NCBI GenBank assembly: GCA_001897605.1
Contig: MKTL01000006.1
Location: forward strand, 672,724 to 736,723
Length of the DNA stretch: 64,000 nucleotides
Direction of reading: 5' to 3'
Source of the DNA: Clostridiales bacterium 38-18
Lineage (GTDB): Bacteria; Bacillota; Clostridia; Peptostreptococcales; Acidaminobacteraceae
Below, piece by piece: positions 49,362-64,000 of this stretch. Position 1 is the first letter of the stretch. Every line of letters begins with the position of its first letter. The notes beneath the pieces were generated by a model, which was not told the DNA's origin, did not search any database, and was given only the letters and a program-made list of their open reading frames with translations. Made by a program: the position numbers and the translations under genes.

Positions 49362-49409
49362 CGTCTAGCAATAGCGGCTTAATTTACGTGAGCTGTGTAC
49401 TAGATGAAG
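49362..49409 (-). repeat. attC-like site, decayed (leftmost)
   Basis: Left box CGTCTAGC, right half AGCTGTGTACTAGATGAAG. The right half matches the consensus ACTGTGTGTTAGACGAAG at most positions, but the core stem has been lost. It lies 1 nt from the stop of the deaminase gene, as attC sites do. Confidence 0.5.
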
Positions 49410-49410
49410 T

Positions 49411-49923
49411 TTACAATTCTCTTTTATTGTCTAAATGCTCTTTTATTCTTTCCTTTTTCATCCTGAACTTATATCCTGAAAACGTCTGTAAACACTCCTC
49501 TTCCAAAATTGGACCGACTACTTCAATTGGCTTGCCACATTGATGAAGAATTTGCTTCGCAGTAAACTTTTTAATTCCACCAGACTTCTCATTTAATTTT
49601 TCTTGTCTAACACCAAAGACAACCCTCGAAATCTTTGACCAATGAATTGCTCCACTGCACATAGAACATGGCTCTGTGCTTGAGTAAAGAGTATAGCCTT
49701 CTAGGGAGATGATTTTATGTAATCTACAATATTCTGATATCAACCTTTTTTCTGCATGAAATGTAGGATCACAAAACTCTATGCAACCATCATGCGATTC
49801 AAATACTATTTCATTGTCTTTCACAAGTAACGCACCAAAGGGATCTTCTCCTTTGTTTTTTGCTTTTTGTGCTAATGCATTTGCTCTTCTTATATACTTT
49901 TCATCGAAGTATTGTTGAGTCAT
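49411..49923 (-). CDS. nucleoside deaminase (cytidine/guanine deaminase type) cassette
   Basis: A 170-residue zinc deaminase with HAEKRLISEYC (HxE, metal and proton shuttle) and STEPCSMCSGAIHWSK (PCxxC zinc ligands). It is in the guanine-deaminase or tRNA-adenosine-deaminase-like group; which substrate is used is not clear. ATG at 49921-49923 follows AAAGGAGAAAAAT. Flanked by attC-like sites on both sides. Confidence 0.87.
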   Translation of the reverse strand: MTQQYFDEKYIRRANALAQKAKNKGEDPFGALLVKDNEIVFESHDGCIEFCDPTFHAEKRLISEYCRLHKIISLEGYTLYSSTEPCSMCSGAIHWSKISRVVFGVRQEKLNEKSGGIKKFTAKQILHQCGKPIEVVGPILEEECLQTFSGYKFRMKKERIKEHLDNKREL

Positions 49924-49940
49924 ATTTTTCTCCTTTAATT

Positions 49941-49986
49941 CCATATCAGGTTCCTATAGTGTAAGTTACTAGGGCTGTGTGTTTTT
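49941..49986 (-). repeat. attC-like site, decayed
   Basis: CCTATAGTGTAAGTTACTAG, then GGCTGTGTGTT. The loop GTAAGTT and the tail CTGTGTGTT are conserved; outer boxes are degraded. It lies between the deaminase and elbB cassettes, reaching into the elbB stop codon. Confidence 0.6.
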
Positions 49987-50653
49987 AATTTTCATCTTCA
50001 TGTACACTTATTAGATTTTTTACCAAATTATCAATACCATGCATAATCTCATACAAATTTTGTGATCCAATAAATGCAGGTGTAGAAATAACCTTATTTA
50101 TTTTATCAACTAGGCATTCGGATGATTTTGTATTTATGAATTCTATTCTTTTATTTTCAAAGATTTTCATAAATGAATTGTTGCTTGTACTCAAATATAA
50201 ACTGTTAACTTCGTTTAGCAGACTTCTGCCTACAAGTAATGATGCGCCACATATAGCACCTATTGGTTTTTGACTGACATAAAATCGCTTTATTAATTGA
50301 TCGACTTCTTCATCAACACTATATGAATCTTTAGCAATAAAATAATCCGATAAATTTTTAAACACGCCTTGTCCGCCAGGTATAATAAGCGCATCAAATT
50401 CATCATATTTGATTGATTTCAAGGCGAAAATCCGTCCCCTTCCAATCCTTGCAGATTCAATCAAAATATTGCGCGTTTCATCTACATCAACAGTTTCAGA
50501 TAAGTGATTATAAGTGTGATTCTGTACTCTATCTGGTGCAAAACAAGCATAATCAATTTGATATTTATCTAGAGCTAAATATGTAAGTATTACTTCTTCA
50601 ATTTGGCTTCCATCACCTATACCACACCCAGAAAGTAAAATAGCAACTTTCAT
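49985..50653 (-). CDS. elbB: ElbB-like DJ-1/PfpI family protein (cassette)
   Basis: A 222-residue protein with the ElbB opening VAILLSGCGIGDGSQIEEVI and the DJ-1 nucleophile region KPIGAICGASLLVG. ElbB (glyoxalase III-type, historically tied to isoprenoid synthesis) is a class I glutamine-amidotransferase-fold protein with an active-site Cys in the ICG motif. The exact function here is unproven. RBS GGAGGTCGG precedes ATG. Confidence 0.8.
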   Translation of the reverse strand: MKVAILLSGCGIGDGSQIEEVILTYLALDKYQIDYACFAPDRVQNHTYNHLSETVDVDETRNILIESARIGRGRIFALKSIKYDEFDALIIPGGQGVFKNLSDYFIAKDSYSVDEEVDQLIKRFYVSQKPIGAICGASLLVGRSLLNEVNSLYLSTSNNSFMKIFENKRIEFINTKSSECLVDKINKVISTPAFIGSQNLYEIMHGIDNLVKNLISVHEDEN

Positions 50654-50727
50654 CCGACCTCCAATTTACTTTTATCTATTATTCTTTAGATTTGCTCTTA
50701 TCCCTTTTCTCATATTAGCCTCCAAAA

Positions 50728-51051
50728 TTAGAATTCTGTATGCAGCTCAGAGATCTTTAAAATCCACTTTTCAAGAGCCTCTTTACTGAAATATTTGTTT
50801 AAACCAATTTTGAAATATGGAATTCCCTGGTCATATAGCTTATCAGAGTATAATATTATCTCATTCATATCATCAGTAGATAACCCTAAATACTTTGATG
50901 CACCTTCTAAATCTAATAAATACACTTCATTTATTTCGGTTTCATTTACTTGATTCTCTGCTTTTATTGATGTTCCAATAAATATACCACTGAAAATTAT
51001 TGATATTCCTAAAAAAATTATTGCGGCAACTAACCAACTGTTTGTTTTCAT
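50728..51051 (-). CDS. membrane-anchored protein with excisionase-like C-terminus
   Basis: One N-terminal helix (about 7-26), an acidic linker, then GASKYLGLSTDDMNEIILYS and the end FSKEALEKWILKI, typical of HTH_17/excisionase-like helix-turn-helix modules. 107 residues. The pairing of anchor and HTH-like domain is odd. No attC-like site is visible on its 3' side (50653-50728), so this and the previous gene may share an interval. Confidence 0.5.
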   Translation of the reverse strand: MKTNSWLVAAIIFLGISIIFSGIFIGTSIKAENQVNETEINEVYLLDLEGASKYLGLSTDDMNEIILYSDKLYDQGIPYFKIGLNKYFSKEALEKWILKISELHTEF

Positions 51052-51073
51052 AAAACCTCCACATCTGTAAAAT

Positions 51074-51199
51074 TTACTTTGATCTCTTCATTGATTGAAT
51101 ATATAATATATTTCCTTTACTATCTAATCGATTTAACTCGTAGCCATATGCGAAACCAATTATCTGTTTGTCCTGTATGCATGCAAAAATCCAATTCAT
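51074..51199 (-). pseudogene. GNAT fragment (aminoglycoside-acetyltransferase-like)
   Basis: The frame MNWIFACIQDKQIIGFAYGY ELNRLDSKGNILYI matches the middle of AAC(3)-type GNATs (FAYGY-x-L), then diverges and stops (QSMKRSK). The acetyl-CoA loop is absent. A weak upstream extension overlaps the end of the next gene. Confidence 0.45.
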
Positions 51200-51222
51200 C
51201 GGGTTAAGTAGCAATTTTCGTA

Positions 51223-51702
51223 TCACAAAACCAATTTGTAACTTGAACCTTTTTCATTTTCCGTTTCAACCTCAAAGCCTAAACCCTTAAATAAATTTTG
51301 TGACTTCTTATTATAATGATAGATTTCCTTAACCCTAAGTTCTTCTATTCCAATATTTCTAGCTATTTCAATAAATTTCATTATTATTGATCTTCCAATA
51401 CCTTTACCTCTATATCGCTCCTCACCAATTACTATTGGTAAACTCGATTTCGAAAATGTTGCATCACCGACTGCTAACCAATCTGATTCTAATACTTCAA
51501 TAAAATACAGATGTCCAACTTTTTCTAAATATCCATACATTCTTTTGATATCATCAAATCCATAACTTTGGGCTGAAATTCCTTCAGACATTAGCAATAC
51601 CTCTTTATCGCTATACCAAGACAAAGCATTTATCCATTCTGATTTTTGGGGTTTTCTCAACCTTAATTTATCGTTTACTAAAATTATCTTTTCAAAGTCC
51701 AT
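51223..51702 (-). CDS. GNAT family N-acetyltransferase (cassette)
   Basis: A 159-residue acetyltransferase: LRLRKPQKSEWINALSWYSD at the N-terminus, acetyl-CoA loop GEERYRGKGIGRSIIMKFIE and NKKSQNLFKGLGFEVETENE. The substrate is unknown. GGAGGTGGAAA precedes ATG. Confidence 0.88.
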   Translation of the reverse strand: MDFEKIILVNDKLRLRKPQKSEWINALSWYSDKEVLLMSEGISAQSYGFDDIKRMYGYLEKVGHLYFIEVLESDWLAVGDATFSKSSLPIVIGEERYRGKGIGRSIIMKFIEIARNIGIEELRVKEIYHYNKKSQNLFKGLGFEVETENEKGSSYKLVL

Positions 51703-51721
51703 TTTCCACCTCCTTATGATA

Positions 51722-51781
51722 TGTCTTAACGTTCTTGCACTCCTCTCAGCTTAAGTTTCGAGTACAATATGATATATGAAT
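51722..51781 (-). repeat. attC-like site, partly decayed
   Basis: The left half TCTTAACGTTCTTGCACTCC matches the consensus well, and the loop region is AGCTTAAGTTTCGAG. The right box has decayed to GATATATGAATG. It lies 3' of the kinase cassette. Confidence 0.7.
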
Positions 51782-51790
51782 GCCAACTAT

Positions 51791-52315
51791 TTAAATGTAT
51801 TTCTTGTATATTTGCATAATATAATCAATATTTTCATTAATACTTTTAAGACCATCAATTTCTATTATCTGTAATGACACCATCTCTAACCATTTATCAA
51901 CTTTATCAGAAGTACGGTTTTGAACCATACTATAAAACGCTTCTTCTGAATCATACATATCCCCACCCTGTTTAACTCTATCTCCAAATCTTTCAATTGA
52001 TCTTTGCCTAATTCGCTTTAAGCGAACATCCTTTGGAGCTGAAATATATATGCCAAATTTTATTGATTTAATTATTTCTCTTCCTAAATCACCTGCAACT
52101 GCTGATAAGACAAATTTTTCTTTTTTTCTTATATCTGATAGTAATGAATTAATGCACTCTTCTCTTGTACGCGGTACACTATAAGGTACTTTGGAATGCT
52201 CAAAATAATAATCTTCAATATCCATAAACTTGTAATTTAGTTTGAATGCAAGTTCTTTTCCTAAAGTTGTTTTACCGCTTCCATTTAATCCATAAACAAT
52301 AATACCATAAGACAT
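51791..52315 (-). CDS. P-loop kinase (cassette)
   Basis: A 174-residue P-loop protein with Walker A GLNGSGKT (residues 10-17), MDIEDYYFEHSKVPYS as the acceptor or DxD-type segment, and the Arg-rich lid KDVRLKRIRQRSIERFG. It resembles shikimate- or gluconate-type small kinases. The substrate is unknown. Flanked by attC-like sites. Confidence 0.78.
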   Translation of the reverse strand: MSYGIIVYGLNGSGKTTLGKELAFKLNYKFMDIEDYYFEHSKVPYSVPRTREECINSLLSDIRKKEKFVLSAVAGDLGREIIKSIKFGIYISAPKDVRLKRIRQRSIERFGDRVKQGGDMYDSEEAFYSMVQNRTSDKVDKWLEMVSLQIIEIDGLKSINENIDYIMQIYKKYI

Positions 52316-52464
52316 TTAGCTCTCCTAAAAATTAGTGTTTTTATTCTTTTTTCTTTCTATACTATTAATGTTCTTATTCTTTCAATTTATATTGTACTTA
52401 AAATTAACTGCTTCATAGATTAACATTATTCTAATTCGAGCAATTAGTAACTAACATTGGCTTT

Positions 52465-52521
52465 CGTATAACGCTCTTGCAGCTTCGTAGCGTAAATTTC
52501 GTTAACTGCGTTTTAATAAAG
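52465..52521 (-). repeat. attC-like site
   Basis: Left half CGTATAACGCTCTTGCAG, core CTTCGTAGCGTAAATTTCG, right GTTTTAATAAAG. Similar to consensus with several changes in the stem. It lies 9 nt 3' of gene 52530-53051. Confidence 0.65.
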
Positions 52522-52529
52522 TAATTTGA

Positions 52530-53051
52530 TTATAAATAGAAGCGCTTATCTGGTAAGTCCATATTTTTTAGTCTTTCATTTATGATTTGTTCAATAAAAT
52601 CACCAATTTCCTTTATTGTTTTTAGTTCCACATTTCCTTCAGTTGGATCCTCAAAATTAGTAAAGTTGAAATTCAGAGTGCTCCATCTCACCTCATTTTT
52701 TTCATTTTGGTACTCTCCAATTAATTCAGATACACTTATAGGATTTATGTCCACCTTTAATAATCTCGGAAAATCGGAATGTATTTGCATAAAGTTTAAT
52801 TGACTCATCTTTAAATATATTTGATTTTTTTCTTCTATACTCAGCTTAAATTCTAGTTCGAGGATACCTTCCACAGAATCATACTTCAAAATTTCATTAT
52901 ATGTATCTATACTTTCTTTACCATTAACGCCATACTTATATGTGAAATTGAAATCATTCGGATATTTTATTTCTTCATCTTTTTCGTAATTACTCGCTAT
53001 AAGCAAAAATGTAATTAGTACAAATATGCCCAATAATATTCGTTTTTTCAT
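52530..53051 (-). CDS. secreted or membrane-anchored hypothetical (cassette), 173 aa
   Basis: An N-terminal signal or anchor helix (about 4-20, no lipobox Cys), then an extracellular alpha/beta domain. RBS AAAGGAGATTTATT. Flanked by attC-like sites, with a long variant on its 5' side. Function unknown. Confidence 0.6.
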   Translation of the reverse strand: MKKRILLGIFVLITFLLIASNYEKDEEIKYPNDFNFTYKYGVNGKESIDTYNEILKYDSVEGILELEFKLSIEEKNQIYLKMSQLNFMQIHSDFPRLLKVDINPISVSELIGEYQNEKNEVRWSTLNFNFTNFEDPTEGNVELKTIKEIGDFIEQIINERLKNMDLPDKRFYL

Positions 53052-53075
53052 AATAAATCTCCTTTTAATTATTTC

Positions 53076-53234
53076 ATCTAACGATGTACATTCACGACTT
53101 CCTGGCCCCTTAAAGTGGTCCCAATCATTCCACCCCTATGTTAGCAAACGTGGAATCACAGTCCGAAGGGCATAGGCGGCTTGATAAGGTCACTCTCTTC
53201 TCAGAGTGACCCTTGCGTGAATTCGTGGTTAGAT
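53076..53234 (-). repeat. long variant attC site (159 bp)
   Basis: Perfect outer boxes ATCTAAC (53076-53082) and GTTAGAT (53228-53234), inner arms ATTCACG and CGTGAAT, then about 100 nt of loop that holds a second hairpin (GGTCACTCT ... AGAGTGACC) near 53188-53211. Size and form are like the long attC/VCR-type sites, not the 54-bp majority, so this cassette may come from another source. Confidence 0.7.
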
Positions 53235-53277
53235 GAGATAGCACATATCGCCGGTTCATCAAATATTAACAAATAAA

Positions 53278-53511
53278 CTATTCTTTTACAAACCATGGTG
53301 AAATACAATAGTTTAATCCTTCAGCTTCTCCCAAGATTTCTAATTCAAAGTCAGATACTTCTTTCTTCACCTTTTAAAGAACGCCAAAATCATCAATGCT
53401 TCCACCATCATTGTAGTATGCAATTGGAATACAAAGTATTGATCCGTGATCAGTTTTAACTCTAACGTAATCAGTAACAAATAAAGTTATCCAAATCAGA
53501 AATGAACTACT
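53278..53511 (-). pseudogene. cassette gene remnant with internal stop
   Basis: A coding-like frame (TLFVTDYVRVKTDHGSILC ... FGVL) meets TAA at 53374-53376, then continues (VKKEVSDFELEILGEAEGLN) to TAG at 53278. No start codon remains. It occupies the 500-nt interval between the long site and 53573. Family unknown. Confidence 0.5.
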
Positions 53512-53513
53512 TC

Positions 53514-53571
53514 ATTAAGCAGCCTTGTCGTCCACAAAGTGAACGTTGCGAGGACTATGTGTTATCTGAAA
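53514..53571 (-). repeat. attC-like site, left arm decayed
   Basis: The right half GTTGCGAGGACTATGTGTTA matches the consensus; the left half (AAGCAGCCTTGTCGTCC) is degraded. It abuts the stop codon of 53573-54028. Confidence 0.7.
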
Positions 53572-53572
53572 T

Positions 53573-54028
53573 TCAATACAAATTTTCAATTTTGTTCGTA
53601 CTTAGCAAATAATTTTCAACGACCTTGTCAGCCTTTTCTTTTCCGTACCAACCTTCATTTTCTAAAACTTTTGGATACAAACTATATAGTTGATTCAATT
53701 CACTTTTCGTTAAATCAGATAAATCTTTTACCTTCTTATTTTCATTAAGAACACTTATAAGCTTATGATCGCCATCTTCCCTAATAAAAACACCTATCAA
53801 TTTAATGCCTTTTTCATCACCTAATTCATAATCTTCATCAGAAATCAGAATAACATCTAAATGTTTTTGCGGTGGTGTTCCTGTTTCTTTTATCCAACCA
53901 TATGGAAATGGAAAATTTCTCATATACATCAGACTGTCGTATTCAGTTTCACTAAATGTATGACTCTCTGGAATATATTTCACTCTTTTCTTATATGCTT
54001 TTGTTTGCTCTATAATTATTGTATACAT
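53573..54028 (-). CDS. inorganic-pyrophosphatase-like protein (cassette)
   Basis: A 151-residue protein resembling soluble inorganic pyrophosphatase: FPYGWIKETGTPPQKHLDVI then GIKLIGVFIREDGDHKLISV. However, the metal-binding D-x-D-P-x-D box is replaced by PPQKHLD, so pyrophosphatase activity is doubtful. ATG at 54026-54028 follows GGAGGTTA. Confidence 0.65.
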   Translation of the reverse strand: MYTIIIEQTKAYKKRVKYIPESHTFSETEYDSLMYMRNFPFPYGWIKETGTPPQKHLDVILISDEDYELGDEKGIKLIGVFIREDGDHKLISVLNENKKVKDLSDLTKSELNQLYSLYPKVLENEGWYGKEKADKVVENYLLSTNKIENLY

Positions 54029-54088
54029 GTAACCTCCATTTGACATGTTTGAGCAATATTTATGTGATAGATTTCATGAATGAGTTTC

Positions 54089-54144
54089 ACTTAACACACA
54101 GTCCTCTCACAGTAATTTGCGATTACTGTATTTAATGTGAATGG
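54089..54144 (+). repeat. inverted attC-like site
   Basis: ACTTAACACACAGTCCTC opens the site: this is the reverse complement of the usual right half, so the site points opposite to all others. The other half is altered (GATTACTGTATTTAATG). It lies 10 nt from the stop of 54154-54411. Confidence 0.6.
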
Positions 54145-54153
54145 TCATATTCT

Positions 54154-54411
54154 TTACTTTAGAACTATTTGTTGAACGAAAAATAAAACTAAGAATATAC
54201 TTGCAACAGCTAATCTTTTTATTAACTTATCTTTTTTTGAATATCTTGAAAATACTAAACTCATAGTATAACCTAACATTCCAACTAATGTAGCTCCAAT
54301 AATACTTTCAATTAATAGGTTATCAGAATAATTGTATGTCACAATGCTTGCTATGTATAAATAGAACCCAAAAAATAAAATTATTAGCACTTCTTTAATC
54401 CTTTTCATCAT
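54154..54411 (-). CDS. membrane protein (cassette), 85 aa
   Basis: Three hydrophobic segments (about 8-25, 33-53, 65-83) with a short basic loop SRYSKKDKLIKR. RBS AAAGGAGAATT. Function unknown. It sits between an inverted and a normal attC-like site. Confidence 0.55.
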   Translation of the reverse strand: MMKRIKEVLIILFFGFYLYIASIVTYNYSDNLLIESIIGATLVGMLGYTMSLVFSRYSKKDKLIKRLAVASIFLVLFFVQQIVLK

Positions 54412-54548: not shown

Positions 54549-55130
54549 TTATTTTTTCACCTCAATATAAATAACATTGTCGATACAGCTTTTAGAAATT
54601 ACTGAAGTAAATCCATTATTTTTTAGTAACTCTAAGAAAGTATCCAAACTTTGTACTTCTTTAAGTTGAACACCATATCCTGTATTAACTACTAAATCTT
54701 CAGATATAACTTCAAGCTGAACTATAAAAAAATCCTCTTTTACTTGATGACCTGAGGGCATTTCAATATCCCAGATTTCAAAAGAACCATTTTTCTTTAG
54801 AACTCGATGAACTTCCATAATTGATTTAATAATCTCATTCTCATGCATATACATGAACGAAAAGAAGGCAGTTGCTCTATCAAACTGGTGATCAATAAAA
54901 GCCATTACAGTTGCATCCATAACAATTTTGAGTGATTCAGTATCACTAATTTCTTTTAACTCATCTTTTCTATTATCAATTGCAGTTACATTGCTCTTAT
55001 ATATTCTTGATATTATTCCTTCACCGCCACCGCCAATGTCTAATATTTTTTCATTTTCTTTTACTTCTTTTGGGATAATTGTTATAGACTTCTTTTCGGT
55101 TTCAATTATTCTAGATTTTTCTATATTCAT
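54549..55130 (-). CDS. class I SAM-dependent methyltransferase (cassette)
   Basis: A 193-residue enzyme. Motif I ILDIGGGGEGIISRIYKSNV, acidic residue in TAIDNRKDEL, FDRATAFFSFMYMHENEI and VLKKNGSFEIWDIEMPSG. The longest frame starts inside the neighbouring attC box, so the internal ATG at 55128-55130 with GAGGAGCAGTTA upstream is preferred. The substrate is unknown. Confidence 0.83.
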   Translation of the reverse strand: MNIEKSRIIETEKKSITIIPKEVKENEKILDIGGGGEGIISRIYKSNVTAIDNRKDELKEISDTESLKIVMDATVMAFIDHQFDRATAFFSFMYMHENEIIKSIMEVHRVLKKNGSFEIWDIEMPSGHQVKEDFFIVQLEVISEDLVVNTGYGVQLKEVQSLDTFLELLKNNGFTSVISKSCIDNVIYIEVKK

Positions 55131-55155
55131 TAACTGCTCCTCAATTTCAAGTATC

Positions 55156-55209
55156 ATTTAACGTTCTTGTAGTCCTCGCAGCGTAAGTTGCGAGGACTGT
55201 GTGTTAGAC
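55156..55209 (-). repeat. attC-like site, near consensus
   Basis: ATTTAAC to GTTAGAC, 54 bp. Stem AGTCCTCGCA / TGCGAGGACT, loop GCGTAAGT. Left spacer 7 nt, right spacer 3 nt, giving the asymmetry expected of attC. Confidence 0.92.
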
Positions 55210-55244: not shown

Positions 55245-56129
55245 TTACATTATATTGTGTGATTTTATGAAATAACTGTTATTTATTTTTACGATTGTTA
55301 ATACTGGATCATTTTTATTAGCTCCAAATAGTTTAATAGTATTATCTTTTACTTCAATCGTTTTACATTTAAAGCTCGCTGGTCCAAAATCGCTTGTGTA
55401 ATTATAGTAAGCATCTGTACTTTCAAGGTAAATTAATAGATGAAAATCACTATTTGATAGCTCATCGAGATTTATTCCTGCATATGTACTAAATAAACTT
55501 TGAACTTTATTTCGTTCAAATCTATGAATGGGAACAGGTAATTTATTCAAGTTATCCTCCCCATCAAACGGCCAATTGGGATGCTTGGATAATAATTTAA
55601 TTTCTGGAAGTTCTTTTGGAACAGTACCAATAGGGGAATATCTTAGAAATTCACCTAAATCAATATCCTTAATATCATTATAATATGATGCAAAATAGCC
55701 ACATAAAGGATTTACAATAAAAGAATCCTGATAATTGTACATTGGTTGAAATAGAAAATTGATATCATCAATCTGTGTTTCAGAAATGTTATCACTACTT
55801 TTATAGATATCTTCCCATATATAGTTCCAATAGTAGGTTAGATTATTTGTCATTAAATCGTACTTCAAGTTACTATAATTAATTTTCAATTCTTCTTCGT
55901 ACTTAACTTGCTGTTCATTCTCGTCTAATAATATTTTTTTATCTCTATTCAATGATTGAACTTCTTCGCTTAATTTCTCTTGCAGTATAGACAAATTAGA
56001 TATTTCATTTTCATATTGTAAGAGTGTATTGTTAATAGATATAATTTTTTTATCGTAACTGATCTTTTGAAATACAAATACAATTATGATTACTAAGATT
56101 ATTACTACACTAGAAATTATTTTTTTCAT
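55245..56129 (-). CDS. membrane-anchored coiled-coil protein (cassette), 294 aa
   Basis: Membrane helix (about 4-22), coiled coil (25-85), then a conserved C-terminal domain of about 200 residues (FLRYSPIGTVPKELPEIKLL, HPNWPFDGEDNLNKLPVPIH, YTSDFGPASF). No named family. A truncated paralogue lies at 40702-41361. ATG at 56127-56129 follows GAAGGGAGTGATTTCT. The anchor suggests an envelope-facing role. Confidence 0.7.
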   Translation of the reverse strand: MKKIISSVVIILVIIIVFVFQKISYDKKIISINNTLLQYENEISNLSILQEKLSEEVQSLNRDKKILLDENEQQVKYEEELKINYSNLKYDLMTNNLTYYWNYIWEDIYKSSDNISETQIDDINFLFQPMYNYQDSFIVNPLCGYFASYYNDIKDIDLGEFLRYSPIGTVPKELPEIKLLSKHPNWPFDGEDNLNKLPVPIHRFERNKVQSLFSTYAGINLDELSNSDFHLLIYLESTDAYYNYTSDFGPASFKCKTIEVKDNTIKLFGANKNDPVLTIVKINNSYFIKSHNIM

Positions 56130-56189
56130 AGAAATCACTCCCTTCTCAGTTTATATATTTCTTCGATGATTTATTCTTTTTATTCTATC

Positions 56190-56241
56190 GTCTAACGTTT
56201 TTGTATTTGCGCCGCCTTAGTTGCGAGGATTTGTGTTAGGT
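56190..56241 (-). repeat. attC-like site that supplies a stop codon
   Basis: GTCTAAC to GTTAGGT, 52 bp, with a shorter, mismatched core (GTATTTGCGCCGCCTTAG, TTGCGAGGATTTGT). The TTA at 56236-56238 inside the right box is the stop codon of gene 56236-56550. Confidence 0.85.
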
Positions 56242-56550
56242 GATGTTATTGAATTCTAAATAATTTTTTTCTAATCTTTCTTTGCATTTACTAATTTCCG
56301 CATCAGTAAATATTAATCTATATTTATCCTTTACAACAACTGCTTCAACAGTCAAATCTAATCTACCTAGAAGTAATAATTTTGTAAATCCTTCTGAAGG
56401 TTCATTATAGGATAATAATTTTTTTGCAGTCATGTAACCTCCCTCTGATTTCAGCATTTCTAAAAATCTAGATGGGTTATAGTGAAGTTGTTTCTTTGAA
56501 AGAAAGTAAATCTCCATCATTTCGTTATCAAACTCTTTGTAAATATCCAT
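56236..56550 (-). CDS. small conserved-type protein (cassette), 104 aa
   Basis: FLEMLKSEGGYMTAKKLLSY then FTKLLLLGRLDLTVEAVVVK and IFTDAEISKCKERL. This pattern belongs to a widespread family of about 100-residue proteins of unknown function, often found in mobile regions. The stop codon lies within the attC site. RBS AAGGTTTAT. Confidence 0.7.
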   Translation of the reverse strand: MDIYKEFDNEMMEIYFLSKKQLHYNPSRFLEMLKSEGGYMTAKKLLSYNEPSEGFTKLLLLGRLDLTVEAVVVKDKYRLIFTDAEISKCKERLEKNYLEFNNIT

Positions 56551-56639: not shown

Positions 56640-56808
56640 GACTTTATATTTTTTCCTTGTAGCTAGACTACTAGTTGGAGTTTATTGCCACTGTTTTATC
56701 TGAATCATTTATAGCCTCTTGTGCCCAGAGCTCTTATATCAATCAAGTCTATGATGATAAAACTAGGTGGATTATCACAGTGTCAATCCAGTTGAAAGGA
56801 GATGTACC
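56640..56808 (+). ncRNA. predicted bridge-RNA region of the IS110 element
   Basis: Known IS110 elements encode a bridge RNA in the non-coding part left of the transposase gene. This stretch has no ORF, sits directly upstream of the transposase and is of suitable length. The location is inferred from family knowledge; the two binding loops were not modelled. Confidence 0.35.
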
Positions 56809-57972
56809 GTGATTTACCTTGGTATTGATATCGCTAAGAGATTGCATGTTACCGCTGCTATTTCTTCTGAAGGCGAAATCATCATCGAGCCCTTTGAATT
56901 CTCAAATGATCATGATGGCTTTTCAAAACTTCTTTCTTCACTACACAATATCCTGAAAGAAGATCTAATCATGGGTCTTGAATCGACGGCTCACTATGGC
57001 AACAACCTTGTTGTATTTTTGTTCTCTCATGGGTTTAACATCACTGTTATCAACCCGATTCAAACCTCTGTTATGCGTAAAAACAACATTCGAAAAACTA
57101 AAACGGATAAAGTGGATGCTTTGCTTGTCGCTAAAACCTTATTACTCAACAACTTCAGACTTGTTTCCAAGCAGGATATCGACCTCATAAGGCTCAAGGA
57201 CCTTTGTCGATTTAGACAAAAGCTCATCAAAGCAAGAACAACAGTCAAAATTCAATTGACCACCTATATCGACCAAGTCTTTCCTGAACTTCAGTATTTC
57301 TTTAAGTCAGGAATCCATCACAAAGCCTGCTATACTCTCTTAAAAGAGGCTTCATCACCTGAAGAGATTGCTTCCATGCATATGACTCATCTGGCTGCTC
57401 TTCTTAATAAAGCTTCACACGGCCACTTTAAGAAAGAGAAGGCTCAAGAATTAAGAGTTCTTGCACAGAAGTCTGTCGGTACTGGTAATAAAACACTATC
57501 TATTCAAATAGCCCAATCCATCTCACAAGTTGAGCTATACGACAGACAATTAGCTGAGATTCATCTTGAAATCGAAATGACGATGAAATCGCTAAATTCA
57601 GTCATAATGAGTATTCCAGGTATCGGATATTTAAATGGTGCCATGATACTTGGCGAGGCTGGAAACATCACAAGATTTTCAGATCCTTCGAAGTTACTCG
57701 CATTTGCCGGCCTCGATCCATCCGTTTATCAATCAGGAAACTTTAAAGCTACAAATACACGCATGTCAAAGCGAGGTTCCAAAGTTCTTAGGTATGCATT
57801 AATCAATGCTGCACATAACGTAGTTCTCAATAACAAAACGTTTAAAGAATACTATGATCTCAAAATCTCCCAAGGACGTTCACACTACAACGCTTTGGGA
57901 CACTGTGCTGGTAAGTTGGTCAGAATCATTTACAAAATGCTAACCTGTAATATTGAGTTCAACTTAGAATAA
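56809..57972 (+). CDS. IS110-family transposase (DEDD, RuvC-like)
   Basis: A 387-residue transposase. N-terminal RuvC-like DEDD part: [16 protein letters not shown] (first D), [20 protein letters not shown] (E) and [10 protein letters not shown] (D...D). C-terminal Tnp domain: [20 protein letters not shown] and [20 protein letters not shown] with the catalytic serine. GTG at 56809-56811 follows GAAAGGAGATGTACC; a longer in-frame GTG upstream lacks an RBS. Confidence 0.93.
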
Positions 57973-59002: not shown

Positions 59003-59168
59003 CCTAAATTATCTTTTATCTTTTGAAAGTAGCTCAATTTTACAAGTTCATTGCCAAACAACTTTATCAAGATATTTTACTCATTTCATTTTCTCAAAAT
59101 TACATCTTCTTTTCTCTTAATCTTCTTTTGAGCGAAGCTCAACAATGTTTTTTATGTACTTTAAAAAT

Positions 59169-59405: not shown

Positions 59406-59514
59406 TTATCGACTTCACCTTTCTTTCCATTATTTCAAATAAAATAGAGATTCATTTATCGCTTTGTTTTATGTTAGTTAACTCAGTACATTTTTGATCT
59501 TTAATATGGGTTTA

Positions 59515-59568
59515 TACTAACGTTCTTGCAGCCCTCGTAACATTAGTTGCGAGGACTGTGTGTTATAA
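59515..59568 (-). repeat. attC-like site
   Basis: ACTAAC with left spacer GTTCTTG, core CAGCCCTCGTAACATTAG, TTGCGAGGACTGTGTGTTA. A few changes in the left arm, right half near consensus. Confidence 0.87.
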
Positions 59569-59595
59569 GACGTAAATCATAATTTTCCACCCCTT

Positions 59596-59624
59596 TTGAT
59601 AATATAACATATATGTTATACAAT
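59596..59624 (+). promoter_or_regulatory. HigBA-like promoter with overlapping 18-bp palindromic operator
   Basis: -35 TTGATA (59596-59601), 17-bp spacer, -10 TACAAT (59619-59624). A perfect 18-bp palindrome TATAACATATATGTTATA fills the spacer (59603-59620). This is the usual arrangement for autoregulation by an antitoxin. Confidence 0.8.
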
Positions 59625-59648
59625 AATTATATATAGGAGATTCTCATA

Positions 59649-60007
59649 TTGTATAAAATTATATACTATACTCGAAATAATGACTGCCCAATTCTTGATT
59701 TATTCAAGAAAATTCCTAAAAAAGATGTTGCAAAAATATTGAGAGATATTGATCCTCTTGATGAGTTTGGATATCTCTAGGGATGCCATATATAAAGAAA
59801 ACGACTGGCACTAAAGACATTTGGGAACTAAGAGTCAAGCAAGCATCCAATAATTATCGAATCTTTTATTTTACAATGAAATCTAATCTAATTATATTAC
59901 TCAACGCATTTCAAAAGAAAACTTCCAAAACACCTTCTAATGAATTAAACAAAGCAATCGATTATATGAATGATTGCCTTGAAAGGAGTGACAATCATGA
60001 ATCATAA
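59649..60007 (+). pseudogene. HigB/Gp49-like toxin gene, frameshifted
   Basis: The N-terminal part from a TTG at 59649 reads YKIIYYTRNNDCPILDLFKK to FGYL, then meets TAG (59778-59780). The rest continues in another frame from 59783: MPYIKKTTGTKDIWELRVKQ to KAIDYMNDCLERSDNHES. Together they make an RelE-superfamily, Gp49/DUF891-type toxin; one base is missing near 59775. As it stands, full toxin would not be made. The antitoxin gene overlaps its end. Confidence 0.75.
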
Positions 60008-60266
60008 CGAAATAAAGAAACTTCTCTTAGATGATAGTGAGATTAAATCTGAATATGATGAACTATCACCTATCTATGAATTGAAAAAAGAAATTATTCG
60101 ATTGAGAATTGAAAAAGGTTTATCTCAAAAAGATTTAGCAGCTTTAATGGGAACTAAGCAATCAGCAATTTCTCGCCTAGAAAATGGATCTTATAATCCA
60201 AGTGTAGAATTTTTAAATAGAATTGCACATACTCTTGGAAAAAAGCTTCAAATTTCATTTAAATAA
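59997..60266 (+). CDS. HigA-type antitoxin (XRE helix-turn-helix)
   Basis: An 89-residue antitoxin with a Cro/C1-type HTH: RIEKGLSQKDLAALMGTKQS AISRLENGSYNP. ATG at 59997-59999 follows GAAAGGAGTGACA, inside the end of the toxin gene. It is intact although the toxin is broken. It should bind the palindrome at 59603-59620. Confidence 0.88.
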   Translation: MNHNEIKKLLLDDSEIKSEYDELSPIYELKKEIIRLRIEKGLSQKDLAALMGTKQSAISRLENGSYNPSVEFLNRIAHTLGKKLQISFK

Positions 60267-60329
60267 CCCGTTTGAACTGGCTTTTTTTAATTCTTTTAAT
60301 CCCTTTTATCTTTAATTTCTTTTTTAATG

Positions 60330-60473
60330 TCTTAACGTTCTTGCAGTTCTTACAGTTCTTACAGTTCTTACAGTTCTTACAGTTCTTACAGTTCTTACAG
60401 TTCTTGCAGTTCTTGCAGTTCTTGCAGTTCTTGCAGTTCTTGCAGCCTCTGTTGAGAGGACTGTGTGTTAGGT
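60330..60473 (-). repeat. attC-like site with expanded 9-bp tandem repeat (144 bp)
   Basis: Left box CTTAAC and GTTCTTG, then 11 copies of a 9-bp unit, then CAGCCTCTGTTGAGAGGACTG and right box GTTAGGT. The core is shortened to CCTCT-GTTG-AGAGG. The extra repeats lie in the left spacer/arm, so the size grew from about 54 to 144 bp. Confidence 0.85.
60344..60442. repeat. 9-bp tandem repeat, 11 copies, inside an attC site
   Basis: Six copies of CAGTTCTTA are followed by five copies of CAGTTCTTG. The unit resembles the GTTCTTGCAG spacer of the normal site, so it likely arose by slippage there. An apparent Leu-Gln-Phe-repeat ORF across it is an artefact. Confidence 0.95.
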
Positions 60474-60485
60474 AAAGTTCAATTA

Positions 60486-60520
60486 TTGCTTTTCGTTACT
60501 GACACGTATATAATATACGT
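60486..60520 (+). promoter_or_regulatory. HicAB-like promoter with palindromic operator
   Basis: -35 TTGCTT (60486-60491), 17-bp spacer, -10 TATAAT (60509-60514). The palindrome ACGTATATAATATACGT (60504-60520) overlaps the -10, as expected for autoregulation by a HicB-type protein. Confidence 0.75.
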
Positions 60521-60567
60521 ATAGAGCGTTGTTCTTGTTCTAAATATCCTATTCCTTAGGAGGATTC

Positions 60568-60795
60568 ATGAATCATCGTTCTTATAACTCAAGGGAGCTA
60601 CTTAAACTGCTTAATAGTGATGGCTGGGTTGTGGTCAGAATCAAAGGTTCTCATCATCAACTAAAACACCTTACTAAAAAAAGGACTGTCACTATTCTGC
60701 ATTCTAAAAAAGACTTACTTCGAAAAACCTATGGAGTATTCTTAAACAGGCTGGAATTGATGGGTCAGTATTCCCTTCGACTTCAACATTTATGA
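60568..60795 (+). pseudogene. HicA-like toxin gene with frameshift
   Basis: The start MNHRSYNSRELLKLLNSDGW VVVRIKGSHHQLKHLTKK is a HicA RNA-binding toxin with the conserved GSHHQ histidine. After HSKKDL a single-base indel in the A-run near 60730 shifts the frame; the expected tail LWSILKQAGIDG is found in another frame. The 75-residue product as read would have a wrong C-terminus. RBS AGGAGGATTC precedes ATG. Confidence 0.72.
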
Positions 60796-60809
60796 AAGAA
60801 GGTTTAACA

Positions 60810-61220
60810 ATGTTAGCTGATCGTTATGTTTTCCCTGCAATTTTCCATTTTGCAGACGATGGTATTTCTGTCGAGTTTCCAGATTTACCAGGATGCTTCT
60901 CTTATGGTGAAGACGAAATTGAAGCTTTATCTAATGCAAAAGAAGCTTTAGAACTGCATATCTTTGGTTTAGAAGATGATAAAACAATTATCCCAGCACC
61001 CTCTCATATAAAAAATATAGTTACAAAGAAAAATGAATCTATCGTGCTTATAGATATATGGATGAAACCTGTTAGAGATTTCATGAAAAATAAGGCAATT
61101 AAAAAGACTTTAACAATACCCAAATGGCTTAATGATGTTGCTATTGAAAATGATGTGAATTTTTCTCAATTATTACAAGTAGCAATTAAAAACTATTTAG
61201 GAATATCAACTAATGAATAA
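60810..61220 (+). CDS. HicB-type antitoxin
   Basis: A 136-residue antitoxin. The HicB core YVFPAIFHFADDGISVEFPD LPGCFSYGEDEIEALSNAKE (degraded RNase H fold) is followed by a C-terminal ribbon-helix-helix-like DNA-binding part (KKTLTIPKWLNDVAIENDVN). ATG at 60810-60812 follows GAAAGAAGG; an in-frame ATG at 60792 is possible. It is intact. Confidence 0.9.
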   Translation: MLADRYVFPAIFHFADDGISVEFPDLPGCFSYGEDEIEALSNAKEALELHIFGLEDDKTIIPAPSHIKNIVTKKNESIVLIDIWMKPVRDFMKNKAIKKTLTIPKWLNDVAIENDVNFSQLLQVAIKNYLGISTNE

Positions 61221-61249
61221 CCATTCGATTTTGAATGGTTTCTTTTTTT
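61221..61249 (+). terminator. terminator of the HicAB-like cassette
   Basis: CCATTC (61221-61226) and GAATGG (61233-61238) around a 6-nt loop, followed by TTTCTTTTTTT. It begins right after the hicB-like stop codon. Confidence 0.85.
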
Positions 61250-61256
61250 GACTATC

Positions 61257-61310
61257 ATATAACATTCCTGTAATCCTTGCCGCGTAAGTTGCAAGGACTG
61301 TGAGTTATAG
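61257..61310 (-). repeat. attC-like site
   Basis: ATATAAC to GTTATAG. The left spacer is ATTCCTG; core AATCCTTGC with loop CGCGTAAGT, then TGCAAGGACTG with compensating changes, so the stem is preserved. That covariation supports a functional hairpin. Confidence 0.88.
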
Positions 61311-61345
61311 GAAGAATTTTTATGTACTTCCAAAATAAATGCATG

Positions 61346-61384
61346 TTGATTTTATGTCTTTTCAAGTATATACTTAGTATATAC
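61346..61384 (+). promoter_or_regulatory. MazEF-like promoter with palindromic operator
   Basis: -35 TTGATT (61346-61351), 17-bp spacer, -10 TATACT (61369-61374). The inverted repeat GTATATAC-TTA-GTATATAC (61366-61384) overlaps the -10 and is a likely MazE-type operator. Confidence 0.75.
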
Positions 61385-61420
61385 AAAACTCACTTATAAA
61401 TCTTTCGAAAGGAGTTTCCT

Positions 61421-61660
61421 ATGTTAGCAAAAGTCCAAAAATGGGGAAATAGTCAAGGAATTAGAATCCCAAAAACTATTCTTGATTCAGCTCACTTTTC
61501 AACTGATGAAGTGCTTGATATTACCGTTGTAGAAGGTAGAATAATACTCGAACCTGCCAATCGTCACAAAACCTTAAAAGAAAGATTAAAAAACTATGAT
61601 GGTGATTACCAATGTTCTGAATGGGATACTGGTGAGCCAGTCGGTCGTGAGGTGCTATAA
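61421..61660 (+). CDS. mazE: MazE-type antitoxin (AbrB-like)
   Basis: A 79-residue antitoxin with a SpoVT/AbrB fold start: LAKVQKWGNSQGIRIPKTIL (WGNS motif). The C-terminal half is acidic and should bind the toxin. RBS AAAGGAG precedes ATG. The stop overlaps the MazF start (TAATG). Confidence 0.87.
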   Translation: MLAKVQKWGNSQGIRIPKTILDSAHFSTDEVLDITVVEGRIILEPANRHKTLKERLKNYDGDYQCSEWDTGEPVGREVL

Positions 61661-61998
61661 TGTCATATGTTCCCAATCAAGGTGATATTATTTATTTAGA
61701 CTTTGATCCACAAGCAGGACATGAGCAAAAAGGTAGAAGACCTGCATTAGTTATTAGTAATTCAACTTATAATAGATCTACAAAAATGGCTTTAGTATGC
61801 CCAATTACAAATACAAATAGGCATTACCCACTACATGTCACGCTAACTTCAAAAACTAAAACATCTGGTTTTATAATGTGTGAACAAGTAAAAGCACTAG
61901 ACATAAATTTCAGAAATGCTGAGTTTTATGAACGAATTCCAGCTATTCTTATGCATGAAGTTTATGATATTATTTATGGTATTATTGAAATTGAGTAA
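61660..61998 (+). CDS. mazF: MazF/PemK-type endoribonuclease toxin
   Basis: A 112-residue toxin: QGDIIYLDFDPQAGHEQKGR RPALVIS, VCPITNTNRHYPLHVTLTSK and EQVKALD are MazF-family hallmarks (the RP motif and the Arg/Thr active site). It is intact, unlike the other two toxin genes here. It cleaves mRNA when MazE is lost. Confidence 0.92.
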   Translation: MSYVPNQGDIIYLDFDPQAGHEQKGRRPALVISNSTYNRSTKMALVCPITNTNRHYPLHVTLTSKTKTSGFIMCEQVKALDINFRNAEFYERIPAILMHEVYDIIYGIIEIE

Positions 61999-62022
61999 AG
62001 ATGTCTTTACTCTTTTTTTTTG
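61993..62022 (+). terminator. terminator of the MazEF cassette
   Basis: GAGTAAAG (61993-62000) and CTTTACTC (62005-62012) around a 4-nt loop followed by a T-run. It overlaps the mazF stop codon. Confidence 0.9.
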
Positions 62023-62044
62023 GTATTATATCTTTTAATTTTTC

Positions 62045-62098
62045 CTATAACGTTCTTGCAGTCCTCGCAGCGTAAGTTGCGAGGACTTTGTGCTATAT
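62045..62098 (-). repeat. attC-like site, near consensus
   Basis: CTATAAC to GCTATAT. Core CAGTCCTCGCA / TGCGAGGACT perfect, loop GCGTAAGT, right spacer TTGT. Outer boxes are both changed in a complementary manner (TATAAC / GCTATA). Confidence 0.9.
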
Positions 62099-62113
62099 GA
62101 AGGCGTTTATCAT

Positions 62114-62584
62114 TTACTTACTTGTTTTTTCAAAGAATTTTTTGTAGAATTTTCCAAGCAACAATCTAATACCTTCCACCAAATTAATAAATATTAGCCA
62201 TTTTATAAAAAAGATTGTATAACCTAAAAAATTGCTTTTAAAACTTATTTGGGTATAAATATTTTTTAGTTTATTCCCGATATCAACTCTATCTAAAGTC
62301 AAGTCATATTCACTTATATTTGATATGTTTTTTTGTGCCCACCTATAATCGTAGTTTACACTTGCTAAATAATGCAATGCGCTCGTTGTACTCTGATCAT
62401 ATACACTTGTTTCAAGTTGGTCATCAATAGAACTAACAAATGTAAATGAATCATACTCTTTATGTATAAAATACTTTGTCATCTGATTAACTTCACCTAA
62501 ACTGGTATTTAACATGACATTAAATGGTAATAGAATAATAATCATCGCAACTATTACAAAGAAATTAAACTTAATCATTCGCAT
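62114..62584 (-). CDS. membrane protein (cassette), 156 aa
   Basis: N-terminal helix (about 6-24), an extracellular polar region of about 85 residues (TKYFIHKEYDSFTFVSSIDD onward), a second helix (about 118-138) and a basic C-terminus FYKKFFEKTSK. Function unknown. There is no strong RBS in front of the ATG at 62584; a second possible start is two codons later. Confidence 0.55.
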   Translation of the reverse strand: MRMIKFNFFVIVAMIIILLPFNVMLNTSLGEVNQMTKYFIHKEYDSFTFVSSIDDQLETSVYDQSTTSALHYLASVNYDYRWAQKNISNISEYDLTLDRVDIGNKLKNIYTQISFKSNFLGYTIFFIKWLIFINLVEGIRLLLGKFYKKFFEKTSK

Positions 62585-62634
62585 TTTTTATCCACCTTTT
62601 TTTGTTTTTCTGTCTTTTTCTCCTATTCGCTTTC

Positions 62635-62688
62635 ATGTAACGTTCTTGCAGTCCTCACAGCGTAAGTTGCGAGGACTGTATGTTAGAC
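62635..62688 (-). repeat. attC-like site, near consensus
   Basis: ATGTAAC to GTTAGAC. Core CAGTCCTCACA with loop GCGTAAGT and TGCGAGGACTG; a single G-to-A change leaves an A-C mismatch. It lies 5 nt from the stop of 62693-63418. Confidence 0.92.
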
Positions 62689-62692
62689 GAAG

Positions 62693-63418
62693 TTATTTGA
62701 CCATAATCTTTACTGTGCTTTTTCTTCCTTTTATTGTTTTAATTGAATTATTATATATACAATTAATGCAATATCTTGTTTCTAACGCCTTCTTAATATT
62801 ATCAGTATGGTCATTTCCTTTACCCGAAATTACAATTGAAGGTGCTATATGTTCAATACCATTACTAGAAGTTTTTTTCAGGCATTTTGGGATTAACTCA
62901 TTTACTATGCCTATAAAATTAAAAATTAACTCAGGAAAAGGAACAAAATTTTTCGCTTCATAAAAAGAAATGACGTCTGAACTCTTCACAAAATTGATCG
63001 CTCTTAAAGTTTTCGAAACTGTTAGGGGAGTAGTTGTCACAATTGATCCTTTTTTTATAACAGATATATCAGGTGTCATATAAATACCAGTAGAATGAAA
63101 TGATTCAACAGTTAAATTATGTCTAACTTCGTATGACATCACTTTTTTCCCAATTTTTTTTTCTACTTCAAAAAAAGAAAAATTTGATGGATACCCATTC
63201 GGAGAAAGTTTATACTTAAACACATTACCATAAAGATTTTTAGGTATAACAGTATAGTTATTATCTTGATAATATCTTACAATAGAATTATAGACACTAA
63301 TTTCAAATATATCAGATATTCTTTTGGAATACGATCCAATTACTGCTTTATTAGTTTTTAAAAATTTTCTAATATCATCTTTAATTAACTTAATATTTAT
63401 TCTATTTCCATCACTCAT
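62693..63418 (-). CDS. PD-(D/E)XK nuclease-like protein (cassette), possible defence gene
   Basis: A 241-residue protein. The conserved acidic pattern is Glu97 in SYEVRHN, Asp117 in MTPDISV and the E-x-K box in FYEAKNFVPF (Glu154, Lys156), spaced as in PD-(D/E)XK nucleases. The rest has no recognised domain. It overlaps the partner gene at 63411 by 8 nt, so they form one two-gene cassette. Such pairs often act against phages, but this is not proven here. Confidence 0.6.
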   Translation of the reverse strand: MSDGNRINIKLIKDDIRKFLKTNKAVIGSYSKRISDIFEISVYNSIVRYYQDNNYTVIPKNLYGNVFKYKLSPNGYPSNFSFFEVEKKIGKKVMSYEVRHNLTVESFHSTGIYMTPDISVIKKGSIVTTTPLTVSKTLRAINFVKSSDVISFYEAKNFVPFPELIFNFIGIVNELIPKCLKKTSSNGIEHIAPSIVISGKGNDHTDNIKKALETRYCINCIYNNSIKTIKGRKSTVKIMVK

Positions 63419-63839
63419 CTAAGTTTTCCTCGTTGATGAATTTTTCTATTTCTTTAAACAAACCATAAGAATCAGTTATTTCTAAAATATCAGCTGAGAT
63501 TCTATATTTATTAATAATGGTTAAGTATTTTTTTTTCAGCATTGCCAACTCATTTGCTTGCTCTATATCAAATTTACTACTTCCTATTGAAATGCGGCTA
63601 ACACTATTATTTAATGATTTAATCTTAAAAAAATTAATTAATGAATCAGCATCCCTTATAACACTGTTATATATAACGTTTAATACAGCACAGAACTGGT
63701 AAATTTCAAAATCACTATTATTTACTTCTTTGTACTTTTTCGAATACTGATACTTCAGGTCTTTAATCAAAAAATCATAGTTAGTCCTGGCTTTAATTCT
63801 CAAATTATATGGTATTAAATCAATGAACTCATCAATCAT
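63411..63839 (-). CDS. partner protein of the nuclease-like cassette, 142 aa
   Basis: A soluble helical protein: LRIKARTNYDFLIKDLKYQY and KFDIEQANELAMLKKKYLTI. No family was recognised. It is the 5' gene of the two-gene cassette, overlapping the nuclease-like gene by 8 nt. It could sense, restrain or help the nuclease. RBS GGCGGTAAACAT. Confidence 0.6.
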   Translation of the reverse strand: MIDEFIDLIPYNLRIKARTNYDFLIKDLKYQYSKKYKEVNNSDFEIYQFCAVLNVIYNSVIRDADSLINFFKIKSLNNSVSRISIGSSKFDIEQANELAMLKKKYLTIINKYRISADILEITDSYGLFKEIEKFINEENLDE

Positions 63840-63864
63840 ATATGTTTACCGCCTTTATAATTTC

Positions 63865-63919
63865 GTCTAACGTTCTTGCAGTCCCTCGCAGCGTAAGTTG
63901 CGAGGACTGTGTGTTATCT
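63865..63919 (-). repeat. attC-like site, near consensus (rightmost)
   Basis: GTCTAAC to GTTATCT. Core CAGTCCCTCGCA has one extra C (bulged base), loop GCGTAAGT, TGCGAGGACTG. The extra unpaired base fits the known role of extrahelical bases in attC strand choice, or is a simple insertion. Confidence 0.92.
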
Positions 63920-63945
63920 GATGTCCGTTTTGAGCGATAGAGATT

Positions 63946-64000
63946 TTATTCTTCAACTATCAAAGCGGAACATTCTACTTTTCTTACAACATAACCTAAC
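63946..64000 (-). CDS. C-terminal end of the next cassette gene (runs off window)
   Basis: The last 17 codons of a minus-strand gene (ending ...LGYVVRKVECSALIVEE, stop at 63946). It sits 26 nt from the attC at 63919, as expected for the next cassette. Too short to name. LGYVV-x-K is reminiscent of GNAT or VOC C-termini but is not diagnostic. Confidence 0.4.
   Translation of the reverse strand, partial: LGYVVRKVECSALIVEE

What the first reader, a model, noticed from the sequence alone, without database searches (positions are those of the whole stretch)
49362..64000. Integron-type cassette array in an apparently Gram-positive genome
Eighteen palindromic sites with TAAC/GTTA outer boxes separate unrelated short genes. 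In 17 of 18 the site follows the 3' end of a minus-strand gene by a few bases. Eleven are close to a 54-bp consensus. Stem covariation at 61257 (AATCCTTGC with GCAAGGACT) supports a folded single-stranded substrate. Integrons are well known in Proteobacteria and some other phyla, but an array in a Bacillota-like background would be unusual.
Basis: partly seen in the sequence, partly recalled or inferred. Interest (0 to 1): 0.93.

Follow-up and report, generated by a model that had tools for sequence, protein, structure and literature searches.

The report
Hidden integrons with a different integrase
A Gram-positive (Fusibacter-like) bacterium carries a long row of short genes separated by hairpin-forming sites, and the enzyme encoded beside such rows in related and some distant bacteria lacks the part regarded as essential for integron integrases, so this is likely a second, overlooked kind of integron that would capture and shuffle genes with a differently built enzyme.

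Summary
The array is real. The window's last 13 kb hold 14 attC-like sites on the minus strand; the genome holds 41 over six contigs. The host is Fusibacter-like, Clostridia. Sites carry the cassette signature: variable bases of one site's R' box complement the next site's R'' box in 22 of 35 pairs, against 2.1 expected.

No canonical IntI was found. The partner is a tyrosine recombinase on contig C24 that matches IntI and XerA, lacks the roughly 41-residue IntI-specific segment (absent in 88 of 88 non-IntI rows, present in 7 of 7 IntI) and carries a HARP-like N-terminal domain. In a same-genus genome recombinase and array share one contig.

Relatives in Clostridia, Bacteroidota and a few other phyla show a full platform: recombinase, predicted attI about 100 nt past its stop, chained cassettes on the same strand. 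IntI groups with these recombinases, apart from XerC/XerD.

Best reading: an integron variant that IntI-domain surveys would not recognise. No recombination was tested.

The parts
51724..51777 (-). attC-like site, degenerate
   Evidence: R1 49.3 bits, E 3.7e-10
52466..52518 (-). attC-like site, degenerate
   Evidence: R1 47.7 bits
53514..53567 (-). attC-like site, degenerate
   Evidence: R1 48.9 bits
54487..54540 (-). attC-like site
   Evidence: R1 62.2 bits
55156..55209 (-). attC-like site; R'' GTCTAAC complements R' GTTAGAC of the site at 56190
   Evidence: R1 80.7 bits; chain 3/3
56190..56241 (-). attC-like site, shortened
   Evidence: R1 49.8 bits
58205..58258 (-). attC-like site
   Evidence: R1 75.1 bits
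58914..58967 (-). attC-like site; chained to the site at 59515
   Evidence: R1 72.3 bits; chain 3/3
59515..59568 (-). attC-like site
   Evidence: R1 66.7 bits
60329..60473 (-). attC-like site whose R'-side arm is expanded by a 9-nt tandem repeat (TTCTTRCAG)
   Evidence: R1 33.4 bits for 60419-60473; repeat family D2
61257..61310 (-). attC-like site with one double stem change; chained to 62045
   Evidence: R1 66.2 bits
62045..62098 (-). attC-like site
   Evidence: R1 77.2 bits
62635..62688 (-). attC-like site; chained to 63865
   Evidence: R1 75.3 bits; chain 3/3
63865..63919 (-). attC-like site with one extra base in the stem
   Evidence: R1 75.5 bits
51791..52315 (-). cassette gene: small P-loop kinase (AAA_18 / shikimate-kinase-like)
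   Evidence: Pfam
52530..53051 (-). cassette gene, no family
53573..54046 (-). cassette gene: inorganic pyrophosphatase family
   Evidence: Pfam
54154..54411 (-). cassette gene, no family
54549..55157 (-). cassette gene: methyltransferase
   Evidence: Pfam
55245..56138 (-). cassette gene, no family
56236..56550 (-). cassette gene, no family
56767..57972 (+). IS110-family transposase between two sites (inserted element)
   Evidence: Pfam PF01548, PF02371
58263..58889 (-). cassette gene: methyltransferase
   Evidence: Pfam
59970..60266 (+). cassette gene on the opposite strand: HTH (antitoxin-like) protein
   Evidence: Pfam HTH_3
60792..61220 (+). cassette gene on the opposite strand: HicB-like antitoxin
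   Evidence: Pfam PF15919
61421..61660 (+). cassette gene on the opposite strand: MazE-like antitoxin
   Evidence: Pfam PF04014
61660..61998 (+). cassette gene on the opposite strand: PemK/MazF-like toxin
   Evidence: Pfam PF02452
62114..62584 (-). cassette gene, no family
62693..63418 (-). cassette gene, no family
63411..63839 (-). second ORF of the same cassette
   Evidence: ORF list
63920..64000 (-). end of a repeated cassette; 81 of 81 nt identical to the end of the cassette at contig C29:2102-2558 and 94% to that on C24
   Evidence: blastn; the window ends at the contig end

Best explanation
The array is likely the older end of a chromosomal integron-like platform whose cassettes would be inserted at an attI site and shuffled by an IntI/XerA-like tyrosine recombinase that lacks the IntI-specific domain and carries a HARP-like domain. 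Shown by sequence: chained attC-like sites bounding mostly single-gene units, a recombinase with an intact catalytic set, cassettes copied to new neighbours with ends at the sites, and in relatives a recombinase, then a predicted attI, then the array on one strand. Inferred: the recombinase cuts at the G|TTR core of R'; the bottom strand of the site, folded into a hairpin, is the substrate, because its G.T pairs make it the more stable strand; the HARP-like domain helps read that folded DNA in place of the IntI-specific helix; the double-stranded attI is the partner; and replication resolves the product.
Confidence: 0.82

Rival explanations
1. A classical integron remnant (CALIN): the sites were made by a canonical IntI that is now lost or unassembled, and the HARP-type recombinase is an unrelated neighbour.
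For: A few CALINs are recorded across Firmicutes (PMC9024848, passages). The bin is 97.9% complete, not closed. In the window genome recombinase and array are on different contigs.
Against: TIGR02249 over its cut-off: 0 of 291 Clostridia genomes including the own (the tool's 14 control genomes also gave none, so I ran a positive control: 2 of 2 IntI-bearing plasmids are over the cut-off). Sites lie downstream of such a recombinase on its strand in 28 of 80 loci, with an attI matching the first cassette in 24 of 33 arrays. In Helicovermis, a complete genome, and in G001 the array is on the recombinase's contig.
Confidence: 0.07
2. Same cassettes and same recombinase, but recombination goes through double-stranded DNA in the manner of Xer or phage integrases; the palindromes are two inverted binding sites, not a folded single strand.
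For: 27 of 32 short sites have no bulge; the enzyme lacks the IntI-specific helix that contacts extrahelical bases (passages of PMC3053210 and PMC4792948).
Against: R'' and R' vary in sequence yet stay complementary within a cassette (22 of 35 and 34 of 47), which asks for pairing, not for fixed binding sequence. Stems with unrelated sequence keep pairing. The bottom strand is favoured in 98 of 109 sites and spacers are asymmetric.
Confidence: 0.12
3. REP or MITE-like repeats or paired terminators at gene ends, with no recombination.
For: Palindromes at gene ends, some symmetric.
Against: One orientation, chain of variable bases, position behind one recombinase, cassette copies with ends at the sites.
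Confidence: 0.01

Closest known systems
Chromosomal (sedentary) integrons with IntI, such as the Vibrio superintegron (VchIntIA, PDB 2a3v)
   Same: Array of mostly single-gene cassettes, RYYYAAC...GTTRRRY-like end boxes, imperfect palindromes (54-139 nt here), attI beside the recombinase, toxin-antitoxin cassettes (recalled for Vibrio), related recombinase core (32% identity over 251 aligned residues).
   Different: Recombinase lacks the IntI-specific segment (60-66 against 102 residues between the two motifs) and adds a HARP-like domain; it is transcribed toward the array; most stems of the short sites have no bulged bases.
Reverse-oriented Spirochaetota integrons
   Same: Integrase in reverse orientation, that is toward the cassettes (PMC9668308 passage).
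   Different: That paper treats them as IntI, and calls IntI by the IntI-specific domain; here that domain is absent.
CALINs (clusters of attC lacking integrases)
   Same: To IntegronFinder-type searches these arrays would probably look like CALINs, since the integrase profile is built on the IntI-specific domain (PMC9668308 passage).
   Different: A recombinase and a predicted attI are in fact present in many cases. I did not run IntegronFinder.
XerC/XerD/XerA recombinases, and CTXphi integration by XerCD
   Same: No IntI-specific domain; the archaeal Xer recombinase 4a8e is the best PDB sequence match.
   Different: The genome has its own XerD over the curated cut-off; the HARP-type falls with IntI, not with the Clostridia XerC/XerD-like rows, and is tied to arrays.
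NCBIfam NF040815 (site-specific tyrosine recombinase/integron integrase)
   Same: Scores near its cut-off of 220: 215.1 for the window genome's protein, 224.2 for G010.
   Different: The model is broad: the genome's XerD scores 217.8 to 218.1; it says nothing of HARP or arrays.

Membership tests
Integron (IntI-type) | Tyrosine recombinase with intact catalytic residues | tested here: met
   R234, K259, H324, R327, H350, Y359 in 87 of 87 HARP-type rows of A4
Integron (IntI-type) | IntI-specific additional domain between the conserved motifs | tested here: not met
   Segment 60-66 aa in 88 of 88 non-IntI rows against 102 aa in 7 of 7 IntI; TIGR02249 matched in two stretches under cut-off
Integron (IntI-type) | attC sites: end boxes, imperfect palindrome, variable interior | tested here: met
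   covariation within A1 alone not significant
Integron (IntI-type) | Cassette boundaries at G|TT of R' (R boxes chained between neighbours) | tested here: met
   22 of 35 own pairs, 34 of 47 pairs in relatives
Integron (IntI-type) | attI next to the integrase gene | tested here: met
   By sequence only: 24 of 33 arrays within 20-170 nt of the stop; in the window's genome 3.1 kb away
Integron (IntI-type) | Extrahelical bases in the folded site | tested here: inconclusive
   Absent in 27 of 32 short sites and 43 of 57 named-locus sites; one bulge in the 5' arm in 16 of 20 Clostridia relatives' sites; one canonical control site shows three bulges with the same method
Integron (IntI-type) | Recombination of the folded bottom strand | not testable with these tools
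   Only an energy bias: bottom more stable in 98 of 109
Integron (IntI-type) | Promoter Pc driving the first cassettes | not tested
   No promoter analysis made
XerC/XerD dimer-resolution recombinase | Groups with XerC/XerD | tested here: not met
   HARP-type plus IntI split from 19 Clostridia Xer rows at 100/99
HARP domain (PF07443) | Profile match over the curated cut-off in the window genome's protein | tested here: not met
   20.5 bits against 25; profile of 24 N-termini finds 4o66 at E 2.2e-5; so HARP-like

The most novel reading that the evidence does not exclude
There is a second, older-looking branch of integrons, spread over Bacillota, Bacteroidota and several other phyla and reaching plasmids, whose integrase never had the IntI-specific helix and reads folded attC DNA with a HARP-like fork-binding domain; classical IntI arose from inside this branch, and many arrays listed as integrase-less CALINs are complete integrons of this kind.
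Probability: 0.5. Interest if true: 0.94.

Novelty: new variant of a known kind. Interest (0 to 1): 0.9.

Why it matters
Integrons are defined in surveys by one small domain of their integrase, described as necessary for activity (Messier and Roy 2001, seen only as cited in passages of PMC2426708, PMC4792948 and PMC9668308). A complete cassette platform without it would (1) show that structured-DNA cassette recombination does not need that domain, (2) supply the kind of intermediate that the Xer-to-IntI transition has lacked (PMC4792948, passages, discusses an I2-like gain as what permitted single-stranded substrates), (3) reveal cassette arrays in Clostridia, where PMC9024848 (passages) calls integrons extremely rare in Firmicutes, and in Bacteroidota, where it names few complete ones, and (4) give a quick computational test: look for a HARP-type recombinase beside every CALIN.
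Full report
What is in the window. The window is the right end of contig C6 (672724-736723 of 736723). Its last 13 kb hold 14 attC-like sites of about 54 nt, all on the minus strand, found with a covariance model at E <= 6.4e-6. The model was built from 14 sites, 13 of them from the window and one from C24, so 13 of the 14 window hits are its own training rows; 26 of the 40 places that it finds genome-wide are not. The sites separate short unrelated genes: a small kinase, a pyrophosphatase family protein, two methyltransferases, several proteins without a family, and three plus-strand cassettes with antitoxin or toxin-antitoxin genes (HTH, HicB-like, MazE/MazF-like), plus one IS110 transposase.

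The array is larger than the window. In the whole bin (3.42 Mb, 30 contigs, 97.9% complete) the model gives 42 matches at 40 places on contigs C6, C13, C16, C17, C24 and C29. C29, C17 and C13 are short contigs made wholly or mostly of array; C29 (8 kb) has 13 sites in one orientation with mostly one main ORF per interval. One further site on C16 (L034:5188-5242; model E 0.84) has an unrelated stem sequence, fully paired, with the same end boxes.

Cassette signature. In an integron the crossover lies inside R' (G|TT...), so the variable bases that follow GTTA at one site and those that precede TAAC at the next site belong to one excised circle and should be complementary. In the own genome 22 of 35 neighbour pairs match in all three variable bases (permuted mean 2.1); the same comparison within one site gives 2 of 41 and in the reverse direction 1 of 35. 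Contig C29 has 10 of 12; the window's array has 4 of 13, so it is probably the older, decayed part. Three cassettes occur twice or more with different neighbours, and the homology runs to the sites as far as the contigs reach: C29:2102-2558 against C24:829-295 and against the last 81 nt of the window; C29:1558-1806 against the start of C24; C29:4994-5582 against the start of C13.

Host. RecA is 89% identical to Fusibacter tunisiensis and 80-88% to other named Fusibacter; recombinase relatives carry names such as Fusibacter bizertensis, F. paucivorans and Helicovermis profundi. Class Clostridia, Bacillota.

Linkage in relatives. In the same genus, G001 has the recombinase at C33:458166-459272 (minus) and 19 minus-strand sites at E <= 0.05 between about 420.5 and 453.8 kb of the same contig (the four plus-strand matches lie on the same palindromes). 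In Helicovermis profundi (G015, contig of 3122901 bp, named through) the recombinase match at 194352-195164 is followed by a predicted attI 66 nt after its stop and 17 sites of 123-130 nt from 197056 to 214019, all on its strand, 13 of 16 chained; a lone weak match 21.7 kb further on is discounted; one shuffled control gives none.

A wider set. At scanner score 11 or more, 63 sites lie downstream on the recombinase strand, 1 downstream on the other strand, and 2 upstream, though 626 kb upstream and 286 kb downstream were scanned; local shuffles give 1.7. 28 of 80 loci have at least one. Of 27 loci with 4 kb or more of downstream sequence 18 have sites and 9 do not; of the 53 with less, 10 have. 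Contigs end within 4 kb downstream in 53 of 80 and upstream in 14 of 80, as repeats would cause. Neighbour chaining in relatives is 34 of 47 against 2.8 expected (pairs under 2.5 kb apart). Two Chryseobacterium plasmids carry such a recombinase; sites were found on one of them only, and the two found there do not chain.

attI. The first cassette's R'' predicts the last bases of attI. That 7-mer occurs between the stop codon and the first site in 32 of 34 arrays (31 of 33 distinct, L040 and L051 being one locus; about 3.3 expected), and within 20-170 nt of the stop in 24 of 33, against a permuted mean of 1.6 and maximum of 9, with 1 of 33 in an upstream stretch and 0 of 29 at 300-450 nt. In the window's genome the candidate lies at C24:830-836 (minus), 3.1 kb after the recombinase stop, and the first cassette, homologous to one on C29, begins exactly there.

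Stem and strand. Under one alignment method, 27 of 32 short sites (30 from the own genome, two from G001) have no bulge; 43 of 57 named-locus sites have none; 16 of 20 Clostridia relatives' sites have one in the 5' arm; one canonical attC used as a control shows three. Differences between the arms are mostly transitions placed so that the bottom strand pairs as G.T where the top has A.C: 31 to 6, 95 to 24, 32 to 0; other mismatches number 0, 23 and 21. The bottom strand is more stable in 98 of 109. An adenine 15 nt after AAC is present in 61 of 77 relatives' sites. I read this as strand choice by wobble pairs; that is inference.

Descent. In a careful tree of 73 rows (40 HARP-type, 14 IntI, 19 Clostridia Xer) HARP-type and IntI stand apart from Xer at 100/99. 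IntI falls inside HARP-type, and 0% of 200 bootstrap trees make HARP-type one clade, but an AU test does not reject that (p 0.216). IntI is on a long branch and differs in composition, and archaeal XerA was not sampled, so nesting is a lead.

Known work. [quoted passage not shown] The archaeal survey states that integrases are called by PF00589 plus a profile of the IntI-specific domain (PMC9668308, passages). TIGR02249 over cut-off occurs in 0 of 291 Clostridia genomes searched (none of the tool's 14 control genomes rang either), while it is found in 2 of 2 IntI plasmids. So these platforms would probably be missed or filed as CALINs. Papers were read as passages only.

Verdict. Strict membership fails on one tested feature, the IntI-specific domain; function like an integron is well supported by sequence but untested at the bench.

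Noticed in passing
window 60329-60473: One site's arm is stretched by about a dozen 9-nt tandem units (TTCTTGCAG/TTCTTACAG), as slippage at a hairpin would make.
   Followed up: partly
L033:1232-1289 and 3083-3140 (contig C13): Two 58-nt sites are near-perfectly symmetric: both arms are copies of the R' side. They still chain with both neighbours. They may come from hairpin-templated repair.
   Followed up: partly
window 53077-53236: A roughly 160-nt imperfect palindrome with matching ATCTAAC/GTTAGAT ends, perhaps a long-type attC among short ones; judged by eye, found by no scan.
   Followed up: no
window 1-49000: Most ORFs listed lie on the minus strand and several are short cassette-like families (GNAT, GFA, YCII, methyltransferases), but no site was found there; possibly a fossil stretch of the array.
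   Followed up: partly
window 12354-13154: Gene with AadA_C and nucleotidyltransferase domains, aminoglycoside adenylyltransferase-like.
   Followed up: no
window 56767-57972: IS110-family transposase sits between two sites; an IS110-family gene also lies in the Chryseobacterium plasmid array (L164:13278-14279).
   Followed up: no
window 59970-61998: Antitoxin and toxin-antitoxin cassettes lie on the opposite strand to the other cassettes while their sites keep the common orientation.
   Followed up: no
L006:420-660, L031:2238-2569, window 63920-64000: A repeated cassette with tandem GAGCGTCAGCGAG-like units and no convincing gene occurs at several places and probably caused assembly breaks.
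   Followed up: partly
plasmid hits H79-H95: Acinetobacter and other plasmids carry recombinases 46% identical to the Chitinophaga one over its core (query residues 104-370), without match to the N-terminal part; one is annotated TnpF. Their sites were not studied.
   Followed up: no
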